Shown here: piece after piece, positions 8,780 to 64,000 of the stretch
Layout of the letters: each line of letters starts with the position of its first letter
How positions within the stretch are numbered: position 1 is the stretch's first letter
From: a virus
Strand: one strand, 5' to 3'
IMG/VR virus record: IMGVR_UViG_3300044940_000489
Span: 55,537 to 119,536 of that record
Length of the DNA: 64,000 bases
Program-made: the position numbers and the translations under genes
The notes under the pieces: generated by a model
The model's input: only the letters and a program-made list of their open reading frames with translations
Databases searched by the model: none
Told to the model about the DNA's origin: nothing

Positions 8780-9661
8780 TTAAATATGTGACATGAAAAT
8801 TTTGCTACCGAAGTAAGATTTGATACTTTGCTCCAGCTCTGCGATTTGCTTCTCTAGATCCTGTGCCCTCAGTGCGAACTGCTGGTTTCCCGGTCCACCC
8901 AAAGACTGAGAGGCCCCATCAATTCCGATGCTTTTAGAGTTATATTTATTAGTCGGCCCCAGCATGCTCAATATCATGAGAGCGGCTCGATATCCAATCA
9001 AGTTATTAATAGGCCCAGGTACGGCATTATCGTCAAATCCAGTGGTGAACTTTACATACCAGAAGGCTGGCATAAATCTTAATTGCTGAAATACAGTTAG
9101 AAGTGCTGCTGCTGCTCCATTATAAGAACCAACCTGCCCAACTCCTGTATAAGATGTTTGCAGAGGAATCGTATGTATTACGCCTTTATGGCCCATGCTG
9201 TCAATATCAAGCCATGCAAGGGGCATTCTGTAAATAAGTTTACCGTCTTCTTCGCCAGCTGCAGGGGATGAGTTCTCAGTAGATTCGCTCTCTACCGTTC
9301 TAATGGATACTTCTTCAATAGAATAAATATTGGGGTATCCTAAGTCTAATTGGCCAAAGCCTTGGGACCACTTAGTTCTATCAAACTCAAGCCTTACTGC
9401 TCTCTGCGTTTGAAAAATATCAACTTTACACCGAAGCTCTACTTCGCCAGCTGCTTTTCGGATGATCGATTTAAGAGTGTCATCCGACATTACTTCACCT
9501 GTCAATGGCGACTTAAGTGGAATTCCAAAAAGAAATTCTGCCTTGAGCCTCTCTGGCGAAAGGAAGCTCTCTGCTCGCGAATAGCCACCGGCTCCGCCAT
9601 CGGTAGCCCTGGATGGCCAAGCACTGGCAATTCTTTTCTTGCTTTTAGAATAGTCAGCCAT
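8780..9661 (-). CDS. Probable neck or head-tail connector virion protein
   Basis: 293 residues, with a GGAG Shine-Dalgarno five bases before the ATG. It has a helical N-terminus, a beta-rich centre (VELRCKVDIFQTQRAVRLEF, SIEEVSIRTV), and a C-terminal helix (QDLEKQIAELEQSIKSYFGS). No transmembrane segment or catalytic motif is visible. Size, position next to small virion genes and general character resemble phage neck or head-completion proteins, but the call rests on context. Confidence 0.5.
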   Translation of the reverse strand: MADYSKSKKRIASAWPSRATDGGAGGYSRAESFLSPERLKAEFLFGIPLKSPLTGEVMSDDTLKSIIRKAAGEVELRCKVDIFQTQRAVRLEFDRTKWSQGFGQLDLGYPNIYSIEEVSIRTVESESTENSSPAAGEEDGKLIYRMPLAWLDIDSMGHKGVIHTIPLQTSYTGVGQVGSYNGAAAALLTVFQQLRFMPAFWYVKFTTGFDDNAVPGPINNLIGYRAALMILSMLGPTNKYNSKSIGIDGASQSLGGPGNQQFALRAQDLEKQIAELEQSIKSYFGSKIFMSHI

Positions 9662-55537: not shown

Positions 55538-56350
55538 ATGAGCACTATTAAAGCTTACACAGAAGAGAGCTTAATGAGCGGCATCGACGAGGCGCGGCGA
55601 AGAATATTCTTCGGAAAGCATCTCAGTGGAGATCCGGATGATACGACGGATTTTACGCAGGCTTCGGTAGAATTGGCAGTAAGAGCAATCCACAAAATGG
55701 CTTCAGACGCGCCGCATAAGCCAATAGAAATTCACATGAATTCCTATGGAGGCGACCCCACAGCCATGCTGTACCTCATGGACGTGATCCTTTCTTGTGC
55801 GTGCCAAATTAAATTTTTTGGTGGGGGCGCAATCGCAAGCTCAGCGACCTGGATTATGGCTGTATGCGATGAAAGGTACTTGTACCCAAATGCCATGATC
55901 TTAATTCACGCCGGTTCGAGTGCGCTTGAGGGCTCACATACTGATCTAGTCATTACCGTTGACAATGAAAAGAGACTGCAGGACCACTTAGAGTCCATAT
56001 ATGCCAATAATTCTAGAATGCCAAAAAGCTTCTGGCATGCAGTAGCTAAAAGGGACCTATGGCTGACGGCTGAGGAAACCATTGCACTGGGGCTGGCCGA
56101 TAAGCTTATTTTGCCCAAAAAGCGGGGGAACTTACGAAAAATAAGGCAGGCCCACTTAGGCCAAAAAAGCAATACGGCAAAAATGAAGAAATTAGTAGTT
56201 AAGTTGTTCGAGCGGATACAGCTGCCATTTGATGTGGAAAATATTACATTGAACGCACCTCCACAAGAGGAGGCCGATCCAAATGTGACCGTTGACTTGA
56301 CAGAGGCCGATAAATTGAGTATTATGATAGAACCAAAAGAAAACCCATGA
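55538..56350 (+). CDS. ClpP-like serine protease
   Basis: 270 residues. ClpP/crotonase fold: IEIHMNSYGGDPTAMLYLMD, catalytic Ser102 in AIASSATW, His in MILIHAGSS, and the DLWLTAEETIALGLAD helix with the Asp. The ~75-residue C-terminal extension is unusual for ClpP. The last eight residues (MIEPKENP) are encoded by the left end of an IS605-like insertion (56326), so the original C-terminus has been replaced. Possible roles: head maturation or regulated proteolysis with the adjacent AAA+ protein. Confidence 0.8.
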   Translation: MSTIKAYTEESLMSGIDEARRRIFFGKHLSGDPDDTTDFTQASVELAVRAIHKMASDAPHKPIEIHMNSYGGDPTAMLYLMDVILSCACQIKFFGGGAIASSATWIMAVCDERYLYPNAMILIHAGSSALEGSHTDLVITVDNEKRLQDHLESIYANNSRMPKSFWHAVAKRDLWLTAEETIALGLADKLILPKKRGNLRKIRQAHLGQKSNTAKMKKLVVKLFERIQLPFDVENITLNAPPQEEADPNVTVDLTEADKLSIMIEPKENP

Positions 56351-56606
56351 CTTTAGTCGTGGGATGAATTTTTAAAAACTTAATAATATGTTAGTGGCGT
56401 TAATAAGTTTGGTGTAGTATAATATATAATGTGGTACTACCCATGATAGGGACATACTAGCAGCAAACAATATAAACAATTCGCATTAATGCGAACACTT
56501 GGTGGAGAGGGCAGCCTACCAAGTATAAATAAAGCCTGTGGAGCGATCAACGGTAGTTGGAGCAATGAAGCAGGAACCCCATGACTTTAGTCGTGGGAGC
56601 TGTCAG
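56326..56606 (+). mobile_element. IS605-family TnpB-less element, copy 1 (281 bp)
   Basis: Left end GATAGAACCAAAAGAAAACC preceded by ATTAT. LE hairpin CCCATGAC-TTTA-GTCGTGGG. The next ~85 bases are like those before tnpB at 63642, including AATAAGTTTGGTGTAGTAT. The tnpB frame is gone: an ATG at about 56428 runs into a stop after five codons. The 3' part (56500-56606) holds the omega-RNA-like structure: stem CTTGGTGG/CCTACCAAG, hairpin CAAC-GGTA-GTTG, CCTG/CAGG pairing and the RE hairpin, ending TGTCAG. It cannot move alone; a TnpA or TnpB would have to act in trans. Confidence 0.75.
56497..56606 (+). ncRNA. Omega-RNA (TnpB guide RNA)-like scaffold, copy 1
   Basis: From ACACTTGGTGG to the RE terminus. 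Compared with copy 2 (57971-58078), most positions are identical, and a T-A pair in the first stem is A-T in copy 2. The bases after TGTCAG (TGAAAATAATAAGGAGATTC) would be the guide in the known IS605/TnpB arrangement. Confidence 0.6.
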
Positions 56607-56629
56607 TGAAAATAATAAGGAGATTCCAG

Positions 56630-57181
56630 ATGGAAATAAACAGCAATAATTCCGAAGCTACAACACAATCTGATGCGCAGGCGACCACAGAGGTTACTGC
56701 AGCAAGTTCAGAGACTGCCACAGCGGCTACTGATACGGCTACCAATAAAACCGCTAGACAGATAAAAAATATTCGACGGAATCAAAAGAGATCACAAAAG
56801 GTGTGGTCTTTTTATATGCAAAAAGAGTCGAATCGAAGGCGCAAGCTCAAAACTCAATTAGAGGTACTTAGGGGCCAAATCGGCACTAAGAATTTTAAAC
56901 TACTTAAGACGTTGGCCACAACAGTCTCAGAGGCCACTAAAGACGAAAATGGCAATATAACTTCACCAGAATCTCGAAGCATTAATTATGAAATGCTCCT
57001 GAAAGAGGGGAAAAATTTAATTGTAATGCTAAGAGAAGAGCGCATGCGAGAAGGCAAGAGAAGCAGAAAGACCGGCACGTCTCGAAATAGGGCCCGCCAT
57101 AATTCTGCCTTCAGGTTCCTTTCTGCCAGAAACCTGGCGGCCTCGTCTGAGGAAGTGACTAAAACTGTAAAATCTGAATAA
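56630..57181 (+). CDS. Hypothetical basic 183-residue protein
   Basis: ATG 56630 with AAGGAG seven bases upstream; the upstream in-frame GTG at 56606 is created by the RE junction. Residues 1-40 are Thr/Ala/Ser/Glu-rich and disordered-looking. The rest is strongly basic and helical (KNIRRNQKRSQKVWSF, MLREERMREGKRSRKTGTSR), consistent with nucleic acid binding or DNA condensation in the head. Family unknown. Confidence 0.5.
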   Translation: MEINSNNSEATTQSDAQATTEVTAASSETATAATDTATNKTARQIKNIRRNQKRSQKVWSFYMQKESNRRRKLKTQLEVLRGQIGTKNFKLLKTLATTVSEATKDENGNITSPESRSINYEMLLKEGKNLIVMLREERMREGKRSRKTGTSRNRARHNSAFRFLSARNLAASSEEVTKTVKSE

Positions 57182-57441
57182 TGGGCCTGAGTTTCATAGC
57201 CATACCGATAATAGGCTCCGTAATCATGATGATTCTCGGGATCTCCTGGGAAGAGGCATTTTTACTTATGGGGCCCCTAATGTTAATCATTATTAGCCGC
57301 TATCTAACGACTAAAGCAATTGAAGAGCAGATTGCAGAAGAGCTTTCTGCCAAAAAATCTGAATGTCCGCCACACGAATGGCTCACTTCAGATGGAATAA
57401 TTAAATGCAAAAAATGCTTATTTAGAGTGGGTATCGACTAA
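57181..57441 (+). CDS. Two-helix membrane protein with zinc knuckle
   Basis: 86 residues, TAATG start overlap. Two close hydrophobic helices (FIAIPIIGSVIMMILGI and AFLLMGPLMLIIISRYL), then a cytoplasmic Glu/Lys linker and a CPPHEW ... CKKC metal motif. Function unknown. Confidence 0.5.
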   Translation: MGLSFIAIPIIGSVIMMILGISWEEAFLLMGPLMLIIISRYLTTKAIEEQIAEELSAKKSECPPHEWLTSDGIIKCKKCLFRVGID

Positions 57442-57776
57442 TGTCTGAGCTTAAAAGCACCGGAATTAGGGTGTCTAAAGAATTCGCCGAGTCCTTGGCT
57501 CGGAAAATTAAAGATATACGGTACCGCTACGATATACCTCCTAATGCCCCTCTAATGAAGGGCAAGCTCTTTTGGGACGACGAAACGGTCTTAGAAATGG
57601 TAGTCTCTTCCGTAACCTCTGGCGGCCTCTTAACAGACGAAGACATGATTGGGGCCAGCCTTAATTTTGACCCAGCTTTTATAAAAGACGGTAAATACGA
57701 CAAATTAATACACGCCTGCTTAACCAAGCTGGCACAAATCGACTACAAACGCGAAACCAGCCTTGACTTCCATTAA
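57441..57776 (+). CDS. Hypothetical 111-residue protein
   Basis: TAATG overlap with the previous gene. Soluble alpha/beta (GIRVSKEFAESLARKIKDIR, LFWDDETVLEMVVSSVTSGG). The stop lies 17 bases before the left end of element copy 2. Not recognised. Confidence 0.5.
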   Translation: MSELKSTGIRVSKEFAESLARKIKDIRYRYDIPPNAPLMKGKLFWDDETVLEMVVSSVTSGGLLTDEDMIGASLNFDPAFIKDGKYDKLIHACLTKLAQIDYKRETSLDFH

Positions 57777-57792
57777 TAAATAGTGCTATTAT

Positions 57793-58078
57793 GATAGAAC
57801 TAAAAGAAAGCCCATGCCTTTAGGCGTGGGATGAATTTTGAAACAAGGTAATATATAATAAGTTTCTTCAAAGTGATGTATAAATTAGTGACAGAGAACC
57901 AAATCACTAATTTATGCATTGAAGACAAAAGTCTTCAATATAATGAAGAATGTTGTATTAAAACAGAAACTTGGAGGAGAGGTCAGCCCTCCAAGTATAA
58001 ATAAAGCCTGTGGAGCGATCAACGGTAGTTGGAGCTATGAAGCAGGAACCCCATGACTTTAGTCGTGGGAGCTGTCAG
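57793..58078 (+). mobile_element. IS605-family TnpB-less element, copy 2 (286 bp)
   Basis: Same left end (GATAGAACTAAAAG, preceded by ATTAT) and right end (AGCTGTCAG) as copy 1. The LE hairpin is CCCATGCC-TTTA-GGCGTGGG, a paired change from GAC/GTC to GCC/GGC. The interior differs from copy 1: it has a 15-bp stem (57877-57891 with 57904-57918) and a competing 9-bp hairpin (57918-57939) but no tnpB. The omega-RNA-like 3' part is almost identical to copy 1. It fills the only >300-base gap without a gene in this block (57777-58084). Confidence 0.75.
57971..58078 (+). ncRNA. Omega-RNA-like scaffold, copy 2
   Basis: Stem CTTGGAGG/CCCTCCAAG (copy 1 has T-A where this has A-T), hairpin CAAC-GGTA-GTTG, CCTG/CAGG pairing, RE hairpin CCCATGAC-TTTA-GTCGTGGG and the TGTCAG end. 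The following AGGGCTATGTTTAATTTTAA would be its guide, which overlaps the start codon of the subtilase gene. Confidence 0.6.
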
Positions 58079-58084
58079 AGGGCT

Positions 58085-58972
58085 ATGTTTAATTTTAATA
58101 CGCCAGCAGCACTAAAGAAATTCCTGCGCAGAATAACATATATAAATACAGTGCTTTTCATAGTAGCCTCTATAATGATTCTTATGGCGCTTACTATGAA
58201 AACAGCTCATGGCGATGTCTGGCAGCACCGCCACTCTCCGCCTAAGCTCAGGCCAACTAAGGGGTCCATCACAGTAATGGTTGTTGATACTGGCGTAACG
58301 CCTAATAACCCCGTCATATCTCCATACTTGGTTAAGCCCGTTCAAATTCAAGATGTAGACACGCATGGCCATGGAACTCATGTAACGTCCCTAATTGTCG
58401 GGGGAGCCGGTACCATGAGAAAGGACGGGGAAGTTCATTTTAGTTCTTTGGTCTGCCCAGAAGTTCGCGTTATAGCCTGCAAATTTTATGATCCTAAAGC
58501 TATTACGAAAATTAATTTAGACAACAGCATTGCGTGTTTCCAGAAGGCTTTGGAGCTTAATGTAGATATAGTTAACTACTCGGCTGGCGGACCGGATTCC
58601 CTAGAGGAAGAGAGACTGGCTATAGAAAAGCTTCAGGAGAATGACATAATATTGGTAACTGCAGCGGGAAACGAGGGGTCAGATCTTAAAATATATCCAT
58701 ATTACCCAGCTAATTATCAATTAAAAAATATGGTAATAGTTGGGGCCTTGGGCCTCCCACCTAACAAGTTTAATGCGTATCAAAGATTTAAAAGCTCTAA
58801 TTTCGGAATATTTGGAATGTATTGGGAAATAGGCGAAGCAGTTTTGGGGTATAACCACTTGAACAAGCCGCAGTACATGACCGGAACATCTCAGGCCACC
58901 GCTTTAGCCACTAACCGCATACTAAGGCAAAGATGCGAGGAAATGAAACAGAAAGACAAAAAGGAGAAATAA
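58085..58972 (+). CDS. Membrane-anchored subtilisin-like protease (S8)
   Basis: 296 residues from ATG 58085, seven bases after element copy 2; the longer frame from GTG 58010 runs through the omega-RNA-like region and is rejected. Signal anchor at residues ~18-42 (YINTVLFIVASIMILMAL). Catalytic triad: Asp in VVDTGV (~68), His in GHGTHV (~97), Ser in TGTSQAT (~269), with oxyanion Asn in AAGNEG. Only about 270 residues of protease domain and no recognisable inhibitory propeptide. The catalytic part would face the periplasm or outside. Uncommon in phages. Confidence 0.85.
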   Translation: MFNFNTPAALKKFLRRITYINTVLFIVASIMILMALTMKTAHGDVWQHRHSPPKLRPTKGSITVMVVDTGVTPNNPVISPYLVKPVQIQDVDTHGHGTHVTSLIVGGAGTMRKDGEVHFSSLVCPEVRVIACKFYDPKAITKINLDNSIACFQKALELNVDIVNYSAGGPDSLEEERLAIEKLQENDIILVTAAGNEGSDLKIYPYYPANYQLKNMVIVGALGLPPNKFNAYQRFKSSNFGIFGMYWEIGEAVLGYNHLNKPQYMTGTSQATALATNRILRQRCEEMKQKDKKEK

Positions 58973-59571: not shown

Positions 59572-59923
59572 CGCCGAATATTTTATGAATAATTGGGACA
59601 AAAATGTCTCAAAGGTTTTTAGATGGCGGCGTCCCTTTGTGCCAGACGAGTATTTAGCTTTTTTTATAGATGAAAAAAATAGGTATAAGGTTAACGAATC
59701 GGTTTCAACTAAAACCATGAAGAGCCTTGATAAAAACGAAATGATTACATTGCTGGTAAGTGAAGAGCTGTATTTCATGAAAAATTATGATTTCTATTGC
59801 AATCTTTTGGAAATGAAAACTGGTGGATGCACATGTGGTGCATGGGCTCTTCCAGGATATGAAAATCTGCATAACAATCAATGCAATTTAAGATATAAAA
59901 ACTTAACGGAGGTGAAGAAATGA
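59558..59923 (+). CDS. Hypothetical 121-residue protein with Cys cluster
   Basis: Aromatic and basic N-terminus (YFMNNWDKNVSKVFRWRRPF), and a C-terminal GGCTCGAWALPG with a later Cys, perhaps a metal site. Overlaps both neighbours by a few bases. Unknown. Confidence 0.45.
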   Translation: MLRSDAEYFMNNWDKNVSKVFRWRRPFVPDEYLAFFIDEKNRYKVNESVSTKTMKSLDKNEMITLLVSEELYFMKNYDFYCNLLEMKTGGCTCGAWALPGYENLHNNQCNLRYKNLTEVKK

Positions 59924-63641: not shown

Positions 63642-64000
63642 GATAGAACTAAAAGAAAACCCATGGCTTTAGTCGTGGGATGAATTTTGAAAAAATATAA
63701 TGATATAATAGTGGTGCTAATAAGTTTGGTGTAGTATAATATATATGATTAGATCGTATAAATATAGAATTTATCCAAATAAAGAGCAAGCCCAAAAACT
63801 AGAGCAGTTTTTTGGGACTACACGTTTTATTTATAATTGGGGTTTGGAACAAAAAACCAAACAATATCAACAAGATAAGGCAAATCTATCTTGTTTTGAT
63901 TTAATTAAAAAATTAACAAAACTTAAAAAACAAGAAGAATTTAGATGGTTAAAGGATGTTTATTCACAAAGTTTGCAAGCATCTTTGAGAAATTTGGATA
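63642..64000 (+). mobile_element. IS605-family element with tnpB, right end outside window
   Basis: Left end GATAGAACTAAAAGAAAACC after TTTAT, LE hairpin CCCATGGC-TTTA-GTCGTGGG, then TTAATA-rich sequence with AATAAGTTTGGTGTAGTAT shared with copy 1 and an ATG at 63745. No tnpA (Y1 transposase) is seen before tnpB, so it looks IS1341/IS605-OrfB-only. Confidence 0.8.
63745..64000 (+). CDS. tnpB: TnpB (IS605 OrfB) RNA-guided nuclease, partial
   Basis: The first 85 codons are present: MIRSYKYRIYPNKEQAQKLE, then FFGTTRFIYNWGLE and WLKDVYSQSLQASLRNLD. These are the typical N-terminal strand and helix motifs of TnpB (YRIYP, RFIYNW, QxLQxSLRNLD). The RuvC-like catalytic part lies outside the window. 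TnpB proteins cut DNA guided by omega-RNA made from their own right end; this one could also serve the two TnpB-less copies. Confidence 0.88.
   Translation, partial: MIRSYKYRIYPNKEQAQKLEQFFGTTRFIYNWGLEQKTKQYQQDKANLSCFDLIKKLTKLKKQEEFRWLKDVYSQSLQASLRNLD

What the first reader, a model, noticed from the sequence alone, without database searches (positions are those of the whole stretch)
56326..58078. Two TnpB-less elements that keep omega-RNA-like scaffolds
Copies 1 and 2 (281 and 286 bp) have full LE and RE and almost identical 3' ~108 bases, but no transposase or TnpB. The first stem of this part changes T-A to A-T between copies, and the LE hairpin GAC/GTC to GCC/GGC: compensatory changes that imply selection on RNA structure. 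In the known IS605 arrangement, the sequence after the RE is the guide, so the phage may express several guide RNAs served in trans by the TnpB at 63745.
Basis: partly seen in the sequence, partly recalled or inferred. Interest (0 to 1): 0.85.

Follow-up and report, generated by a model that had tools for sequence, protein, structure and literature searches.

The report
TnpB-less phage transposons carrying guide-RNA scaffolds
Two short, gene-less jumping elements in a phage genome keep the complete RNA scaffold that normally guides the DNA-cutting protein TnpB, so they could borrow the phage's TnpB to protect or spread themselves; the parts are verified in sequence, the activity is not.

Summary
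Copies 1 (56326-56606, 281 bp) and 2 (57793-58078, 286 bp) are TnpB-less IS200/IS605 elements (PATE/MITE class). The 119.5-kb phage record holds three more scaffold-bearing copies, one full tnpB and one cut by the contig end; a different phage has its own short copy. A sister strain with a filled site that is empty in the window gives the target (TTAT) and right end (TCAG).

The last 110 nt are a complete omega-RNA scaffold with ISDra2-like architecture. Covariation is strong, and the model hits the 3' end of many distant TnpB genes.

Within type-B copies the scaffold is no more conserved than the rest. Scaffold alleles are swapped between copies, and three right-end hairpins carry a broken pair. 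Recency and gene conversion could explain the conservation.

New: copies 1 and 2, and two others, sit on sigma70-like promoters whose -10 ends 0-7 nt from the insertion point (copies 1 and 2: the -10 is the target itself), so RNA would start inside the element. Most likely these are non-autonomous elements able to feed guides to the phage's TnpB in trans, each guide aimed only at its own empty site. Expression and loading are untested.

The parts
56326..56606 (+). Copy 1 (E7): TnpB-less IS200/IS605 element, type A (LE + tnpB promoter region + last tnpB codons + RE)
   Evidence: ends fixed by filled/empty comparison of E10
56322..56325 (+). Target site / TAM TTAT of copy 1
56297..56325 (+). Sigma70-like promoter TTGACA-17-TATTAT (11/12); -10 ends at the insertion point
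56344..56363 (+). LE hairpin of copy 1 (GAC/GTC type)
56497..56606 (+). Omega-RNA scaffold of copy 1 (stem1, PK strand, stems 2-4)
   Evidence: 138.8 bits
56578..56597 (+). RE hairpin = stem 4 of the scaffold, TTTA loop
56607..56622 (+). Guide position of copy 1 (TGAAAATAATAAGGAG), read from flanking phage DNA
   Evidence: 16-nt guide by analogy with ISDra2 (PMC8612924)
57793..58078 (+). Copy 2 (E8): TnpB-less element, type B
57789..57792 (+). Target site / TAM TTAT of copy 2
57763..57792 (+). Promoter-like TTGACT-18-TATTAT (10/12, TG before -10); -10 ends at the insertion point
57811..57830 (+). LE hairpin of copy 2 (GCC/GGC type)
57864..57950 (+). Internal three-way junction derived from the tnpB segment around the RuvC-II codons; contains a 16-bp hairpin 57876-57919
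57969..58078 (+). Omega-RNA scaffold of copy 2
   Evidence: 142.3 bits, best of all
58050..58069 (+). RE hairpin = stem 4 of copy 2
58079..58094 (+). Guide position of copy 2 (AGGGCTATGTTTAATT)
63642..64000 (+). Element E9 with tnpB from 63745, cut by contig end; complete in sister strain (L019)
59785..59808 (+). Empty TTAT + target that a tnpB element (E10) occupies at its right junction in strain 000568; its guide matches 19/20 here, 12/12 in the seed

Best explanation
The two features are non-autonomous IS200/IS605 elements (PATE class), internal-deletion derivatives of a TnpB-only element of the ISDra2 TnpB lineage, inserted 3' of TTAT. SHOWN in sequence: both ends; a complete 110-nt omega-RNA scaffold with the same helices and pseudoknot layout as ISDra2; a resident TnpB with the RuvC residues D186, E272 and D353; a guide-position flank; and a promoter-like sequence ending at the insertion point. 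INFERRED: (1) they move with a Y1 TnpA supplied in trans, because none is found in the record; (2) the captured phage promoter transcribes the element from its first nucleotides; (3) TnpB binds and trims this RNA in trans as it does its own mRNA; (4) the RNP cuts the element's own empty site (TTAT + guide) after excision or in a co-infecting phage, so repair restores or spreads the element. My split: PATE derivative with complete scaffold 0.95; transcribed 0.6; serves TnpB in trans with retention or drive as the outcome 0.45.
For: Elements and census. Empty/filled site giving TTAT and TCAG. TnpB intact and closest to ISDra2 among natural solved TnpBs (8bf8, E about 1e-65), catalytic residues aligned. 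Scaffold: 99.6% of cells paired, 4 pairs and 9 cells with two-sided change, 0/500 shuffles for cells and covariation score, none in slid controls. The model finds scaffolds at the 3' end of distant TnpB genes, and 26 of 27 pairs change on both sides over 29 sequences (alignment fitted to the structure). Stem 2 lies at -36..-33 against -35..-32 in ISDra2, and the 110-nt length compares with 116 nt of functional ISDra2 scaffold (PMC10097598) and 106 nt in AmaTnpB (PMC10278001). TnpB-less scaffolds score like tnpB-linked ones (136-142 bits against 141-142 in this phage). A second phage (L025) has its own TnpB and a TnpB-less copy sharing its lineage-specific stem 3, two compensatory pairs away from ours. 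Promoter placement: 4 of 8 left junctions against 4 of about 205 other intergenic TTAT sites, Fisher p 5.5e-5. TnpB-driven gene drive is shown on plasmids (PMC11870625).
Against: No RNA data. The scaffold is not more conserved than the internal region among type-B copies (3-7/110 against 1-4/129 in most pairs). Alleles are exchanged between copies, so recency and conversion suffice. A 46-bp derivative without scaffold exists (E2). The LE hairpin resembles a weak terminator, which could stop transcripts from the upstream promoter. No empty allele of copies 1 or 2 was found. No promoter-like site passes the same threshold before E3, E2, E9, E10 or the L025 copies. The promoter test is post hoc and assumes a sigma70-type consensus in an unknown host.
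Confidence: 0.5

Rival explanations
1. Ordinary PATEs. The scaffold is a passenger: the elements arose recently by internal deletion of tnpB, move through a TnpA in trans that needs only the end hairpins, and look conserved because they are young and homogenised by gene conversion. No RNA function of their own.
For: PATEs and terminal-only 52-bp forms are known in Haloquadratum (PMC3119063), and a Halanaerobium PATE keeps the last 58 nt of tnpB plus the RE (PMC7290912). The 46-bp E2 has the same nature. Equal or greater divergence in the scaffold than in the internal part. Conversion seen directly: E1 and its orthologue in strain 711 share flanks and body but differ at 7/110 in the scaffold. 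Broken stem-4 pair in three copies.
Against: In all six scaffold-bearing short copies of two phages the scaffold is complete; type-B and L025 copies retain tnpB 3' homology from the first base of stem 1; promoter placement is unexpected for a passenger unless open promoters are simply preferred targets.
Confidence: 0.4
2. The RNA is an inhibitor or decoy of TnpB: type-B copies keep the tnpB mRNA segment around the RuvC-II codons, perfected into hairpins, fused to the scaffold, and this titrates or inhibits TnpB, as the RuvC-II-adjacent region of AmaTnpB mRNA does in vitro.
For: Type-B internal region derives from about nt 753-848 of tnpB; whole-element RNA fold z -9.8; AmaTnpB mRNA nt 825-875, adjacent to RuvC-II, reduces cleavage (PMC10278001).
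Against: Copy 1 (type A) lacks this segment. The Ama effect was ascribed to complementarity with the omega-RNA, whereas here the segment folds on itself. ssDNA hairpin perfection by template switching would give the same pattern.
Confidence: 0.06
3. Domesticated regulatory elements: the insertions were kept for their effect on downstream phage genes (5' leaders of the mRNAs after 56606 and 58078).
For: They lie 0-7 nt downstream of promoter -10 sequences and are co-directional with the next gene.
Against: Same element types at unrelated genes; mosaics and a terminal-only form look like a mobile family in turnover; no sequence conserved beyond what mobility needs.
Confidence: 0.04

Closest known systems
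PATEs of Haloquadratum walsbyi (IS605-derived, PMC3119063)
   Same: TnpB-less, subterminal palindromes, no target duplication, internal core deletions, terminal-only form of about 50 bp (here 46 bp)
   Different: Here in a phage, with full-length omega-RNA scaffolds verified by covariation and a matching intact TnpB in the same genome
PATE-like sequence of Halanaerobium hydrogeniformans (PMC7290912)
   Same: LE hairpin + last 58 nt of tnpB + whole RE kept
   Different: Single copy described before omega-RNA was known; here several copies, two body types, promoter-proximal
ISDra2 TnpB-reRNA (PMC8612924, PMC10097598)
   Same: TnpB lineage, scaffold architecture, UUUA-loop RE hairpin, guide from the 3' flank
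   Different: TAM TTAT instead of TTGAT; right end TCAG; scaffold 110 nt; TnpB absent from the two elements; no tnpA found
IS200/IS605 plasmid gene drive by TnpB (PMC11870625)
   Same: Guide targets the element's own empty site in co-resident replicons
   Different: There the element carries TnpB; here TnpB would act in trans between elements of a phage

Membership tests
IS200/IS605-derived PATE | Subterminal palindromes at both ends, no inverted terminal repeats | tested here: met
IS200/IS605-derived PATE | No transposase or tnpB ORF, ends shared with a full-length relative | tested here: met
IS200/IS605-derived PATE | Insertion 3' of a short fixed target, no target duplication | tested here: met
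   TTAT at all mapped left junctions of this phage; right junction of the tnpB relative E10 against the empty site. No empty allele of copies 1 and 2 themselves was available.
IS200/IS605-derived PATE | Mobilised by a Y1 TnpA in trans | not testable with these tools
   No Y1_Tnp match in four records, which may be fragments; host genome unknown
TnpB omega-RNA | Scaffold with stem 1, pseudoknot, stems 2-4 ending at the RE | tested here: met
   pseudoknot CAGC/GCUG invariant here, so shown only as complementarity
TnpB omega-RNA | Expressed and bound by TnpB, flank used as guide | not testable with these tools
   needs RNA-seq and pull-down
Active TnpB nuclease (the partner) | RuvC D-E-D, zinc ribbon, OrfB_IS605 domains | tested here: met
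TldR (nuclease-dead TnpB regulator) | Loss of RuvC catalytic residues | tested here: not met
   residues intact

The most novel reading that the evidence does not exclude
Non-autonomous elements that parasitise both TnpA and TnpB: they insert at the -10 of phage promoters, so every insertion automatically expresses a new guide RNA that drives its own spread through co-infecting phage genomes with a TnpB encoded elsewhere, and type-B copies add a tnpB-derived RNA domain that modulates TnpB.
Probability: 0.15. Interest if true: 0.78.

Novelty: new variant of a known kind. Interest (0 to 1): 0.52.

Why it matters
TnpB guides are normally thought of in cis: the RNA is cut from the mRNA of the same element. 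If short elements supply scaffolds in trans, TnpB becomes a shared resource, and a genome holding one nuclease gene and several dispersed guide genes is one step from a CRISPR-like arrangement. The phage offers two body types, natural scaffold variants and a natural filled/empty pair, so trans loading can be tested directly. Insertion at promoter -10 sites would also explain how gene-less elements get transcribed.

Tried and rejected
Rfam gathering search of the window: nothing. Phage collection with copy 1: no match. Search for tnpA in this and three related records: none. Relatives of the upstream ClpP-like gene (42-59% identical in eight other contigs) to find the empty site of copy 1: no element seen there, but flanks too diverged to align. 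Guides tested for TTAT/TTAC targets elsewhere in the held sequence: only the E10 empty site. First pair count used a structure off by one column and is void (corrected). Idea that the element's own GAT creates a TATGAT -10 at every insertion: -35 matches too weak apart from E3 and E9, dropped. A model hit away from its TnpB in L067 turned out to be a second TnpB. TldR-like role rejected because the catalytic residues are present.

Full report
WHAT IS THERE. The window is bases 55537-119536 of a 119,536-bp IMG/VR virus record. The 110-nt 3' part occurs six times in the record: five TnpB-less elements (E1, E3, E4, E7 = copy 1, E8 = copy 2) and one full tnpB element (E5, 396 aa). A further tnpB element (E9) begins at 63642 and is cut by the contig end, but is complete in sister contig IMGVR_3300044993_000568. 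A 46-bp element (E2) consists of fused LE and RE sharing one hairpin.

ENDS. Contig 000568 carries an extra tnpB element (E10) that the window lacks. Its right junction reads TCAG|GATTTCTATTGC where the window reads TTAT|GATTTCTATTGC (59785). This fixes TTAT as target and TAM and TCAG as right end, with no duplication. Its left junction lies at another TTAT 114 bp upstream, so host sequence between the two sites was lost.

ORIGIN OF THE SHORT FORMS. Type A (copy 1, E3) is a simple internal deletion: LE, tnpB upstream region, then the last tnpB codons and RE. Type B (copy 2, E1, E4) keeps LE, about 100 nt of tnpB around the RuvC-II codons, and the 3' end from stem 1 on. L025:3871-4140, in a different phage (IMGVR_3300044994_000370), has a similar layout next to its own TnpB.

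OMEGA-RNA SCAFFOLD. The 110 nt fold into stem 1 (8 bp), a loop whose CAGC can pair with GCUG before the guide (pseudoknot), stem 2 CCUG/CAGG, stem 3, and stem 4 with a UUUA loop. This is the arrangement solved for ISDra2 (PMC10097598), with stem 2 one base off in register. Among 11 scaffolds (9 distinct), 99.6% of cells pair, 4 pairs show two-sided change, and slid controls show none. A covariance model without the pseudoknot finds the 3' end of many distant TnpB genes; there 26 of 27 pairs change on both sides (alignment fitted to the structure). Stem 3 changes from CAAC/GUUG here to UAGC/GCUA in L025, while the overlapping tnpB codons change N to S, G to V and W to stop. The RNA, not the protein tail, is conserved.

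IS THERE SELECTION IN THE SHORT COPIES? Not shown. Among type-B copies the scaffold differs at 3-7 of 110 sites (0 between E4 and the 711 orthologue of E1) and the internal part at 1-4 of 129. E1 in this record and its orthologue in strain 711 share flanks and body but differ at 7 scaffold sites, and the latter equals E3/E4. Scaffold alleles are therefore moved between copies by recombination or conversion. The stem-4 pair is broken in E3, E4 and the 711 copy.

PARTNER. The E5 TnpB matches OrfB_IS605, Cas12f1-like_TNB and HTH_OrfB_IS605. The closest natural solved relative of both E5 and E9 TnpBs is ISDra2 TnpB, and the D-E-D residues are kept. No Y1 TnpA was found in this record or in three related ones, which may be incomplete.

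TRANSCRIPTION. Copies 1 and 2 lie directly 3' of TTGACA-17-TATTAT and TTGACT-18-TATTAT, the TTAT of the -10 being the target site. The same scoring over 1,506 TTAT sites gives a score of 10 or more at 0.9% of them, but at 4 of the 8 mapped left junctions (E1, E4, E7, E8; E4's -10 ends 7 nt and E1's 3 nt upstream). Against other intergenic TTAT sites Fisher p is 5.5e-5. This is post hoc, rests on a rough gene call, and assumes a sigma70-like consensus. RNA would begin a few bases inside the element and run through scaffold, guide and next gene. Either promoters are preferred targets (open complexes expose single-stranded TTAT; my inference) or expressed insertions persist better.

GUIDES. No guide has a TTAT/TTAC target elsewhere in the held sequence except that of E10, which fits the empty window site 19/20 with a perfect 12-nt seed. 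The system, if active, is self-retention or drive, as shown for plasmids (PMC11870625).

JUDGEMENT. What the elements are is nearly certain; that their scaffolds are competent is likely; that they are used in trans is about an even bet. Published PATEs already include tnpB-tail-plus-RE forms (PMC3119063, PMC7290912), so this is a variant of a known kind. From memory and unchecked, gene-less IS605 relatives have been noted beside TnpB/IscB systems in Geobacillus work, and stand-alone omega-RNAs were reported for IscB; I found no paper in the held library testing trans supply for TnpB.

Noticed in passing
window 59640-59800; L018:2549 to L019:602: Sister strain 000568 carries a tnpB element with left and right junctions at two TTAT sites 114 bp apart; the host sequence between them is deleted. 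The window is the undeleted state.
   Followed up: partly
L010:1564-1610 (minus): 46-bp terminal-only element (E2): one hairpin serving as LE and RE, like the 52-bp PATEs of Haloquadratum.
   Followed up: partly
L009:3481-3763 and L020:13287-13570: Orthologous insertion in two strains with the same guide but different scaffold alleles: direct trace of gene conversion between copies.
   Followed up: yes
window 57864-57950: A tnpB segment around the RuvC-II codons has become a near-perfect three-way junction in type-B copies, where the parent gene has imperfect stems; quasipalindrome correction or RNA/ssDNA selection.
   Followed up: partly
L010:1896-1945: Repeated TATATAAT-like units expanded inside the type-A copy E3.
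   Followed up: no
L010:1610-1735 and 9130-9260: About 125-bp duplicated intergenic sequence flanks elements E2/E3 and the E5 tnpB, which has lost its LE hairpin; suggests recombination between element copies.
   Followed up: no
L010:2220-2385: Tandem repeat of GGGGATCAGTTG-like units (QLIPQL-type coding potential on the minus strand).
   Followed up: no
record coordinates 114717, 67707 and 69107 (window 59181, 12171, 13571): Other strong TTGACA/TATTAT promoter-like sites in intergenic DNA, uninserted TTAT targets of the same kind.
   Followed up: no
L025:1989-3167: TnpB of the second phage ends early (W to stop) because of the stem-3 compensatory changes, suggesting RNA constraint over the C-terminal tail.
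   Followed up: yes
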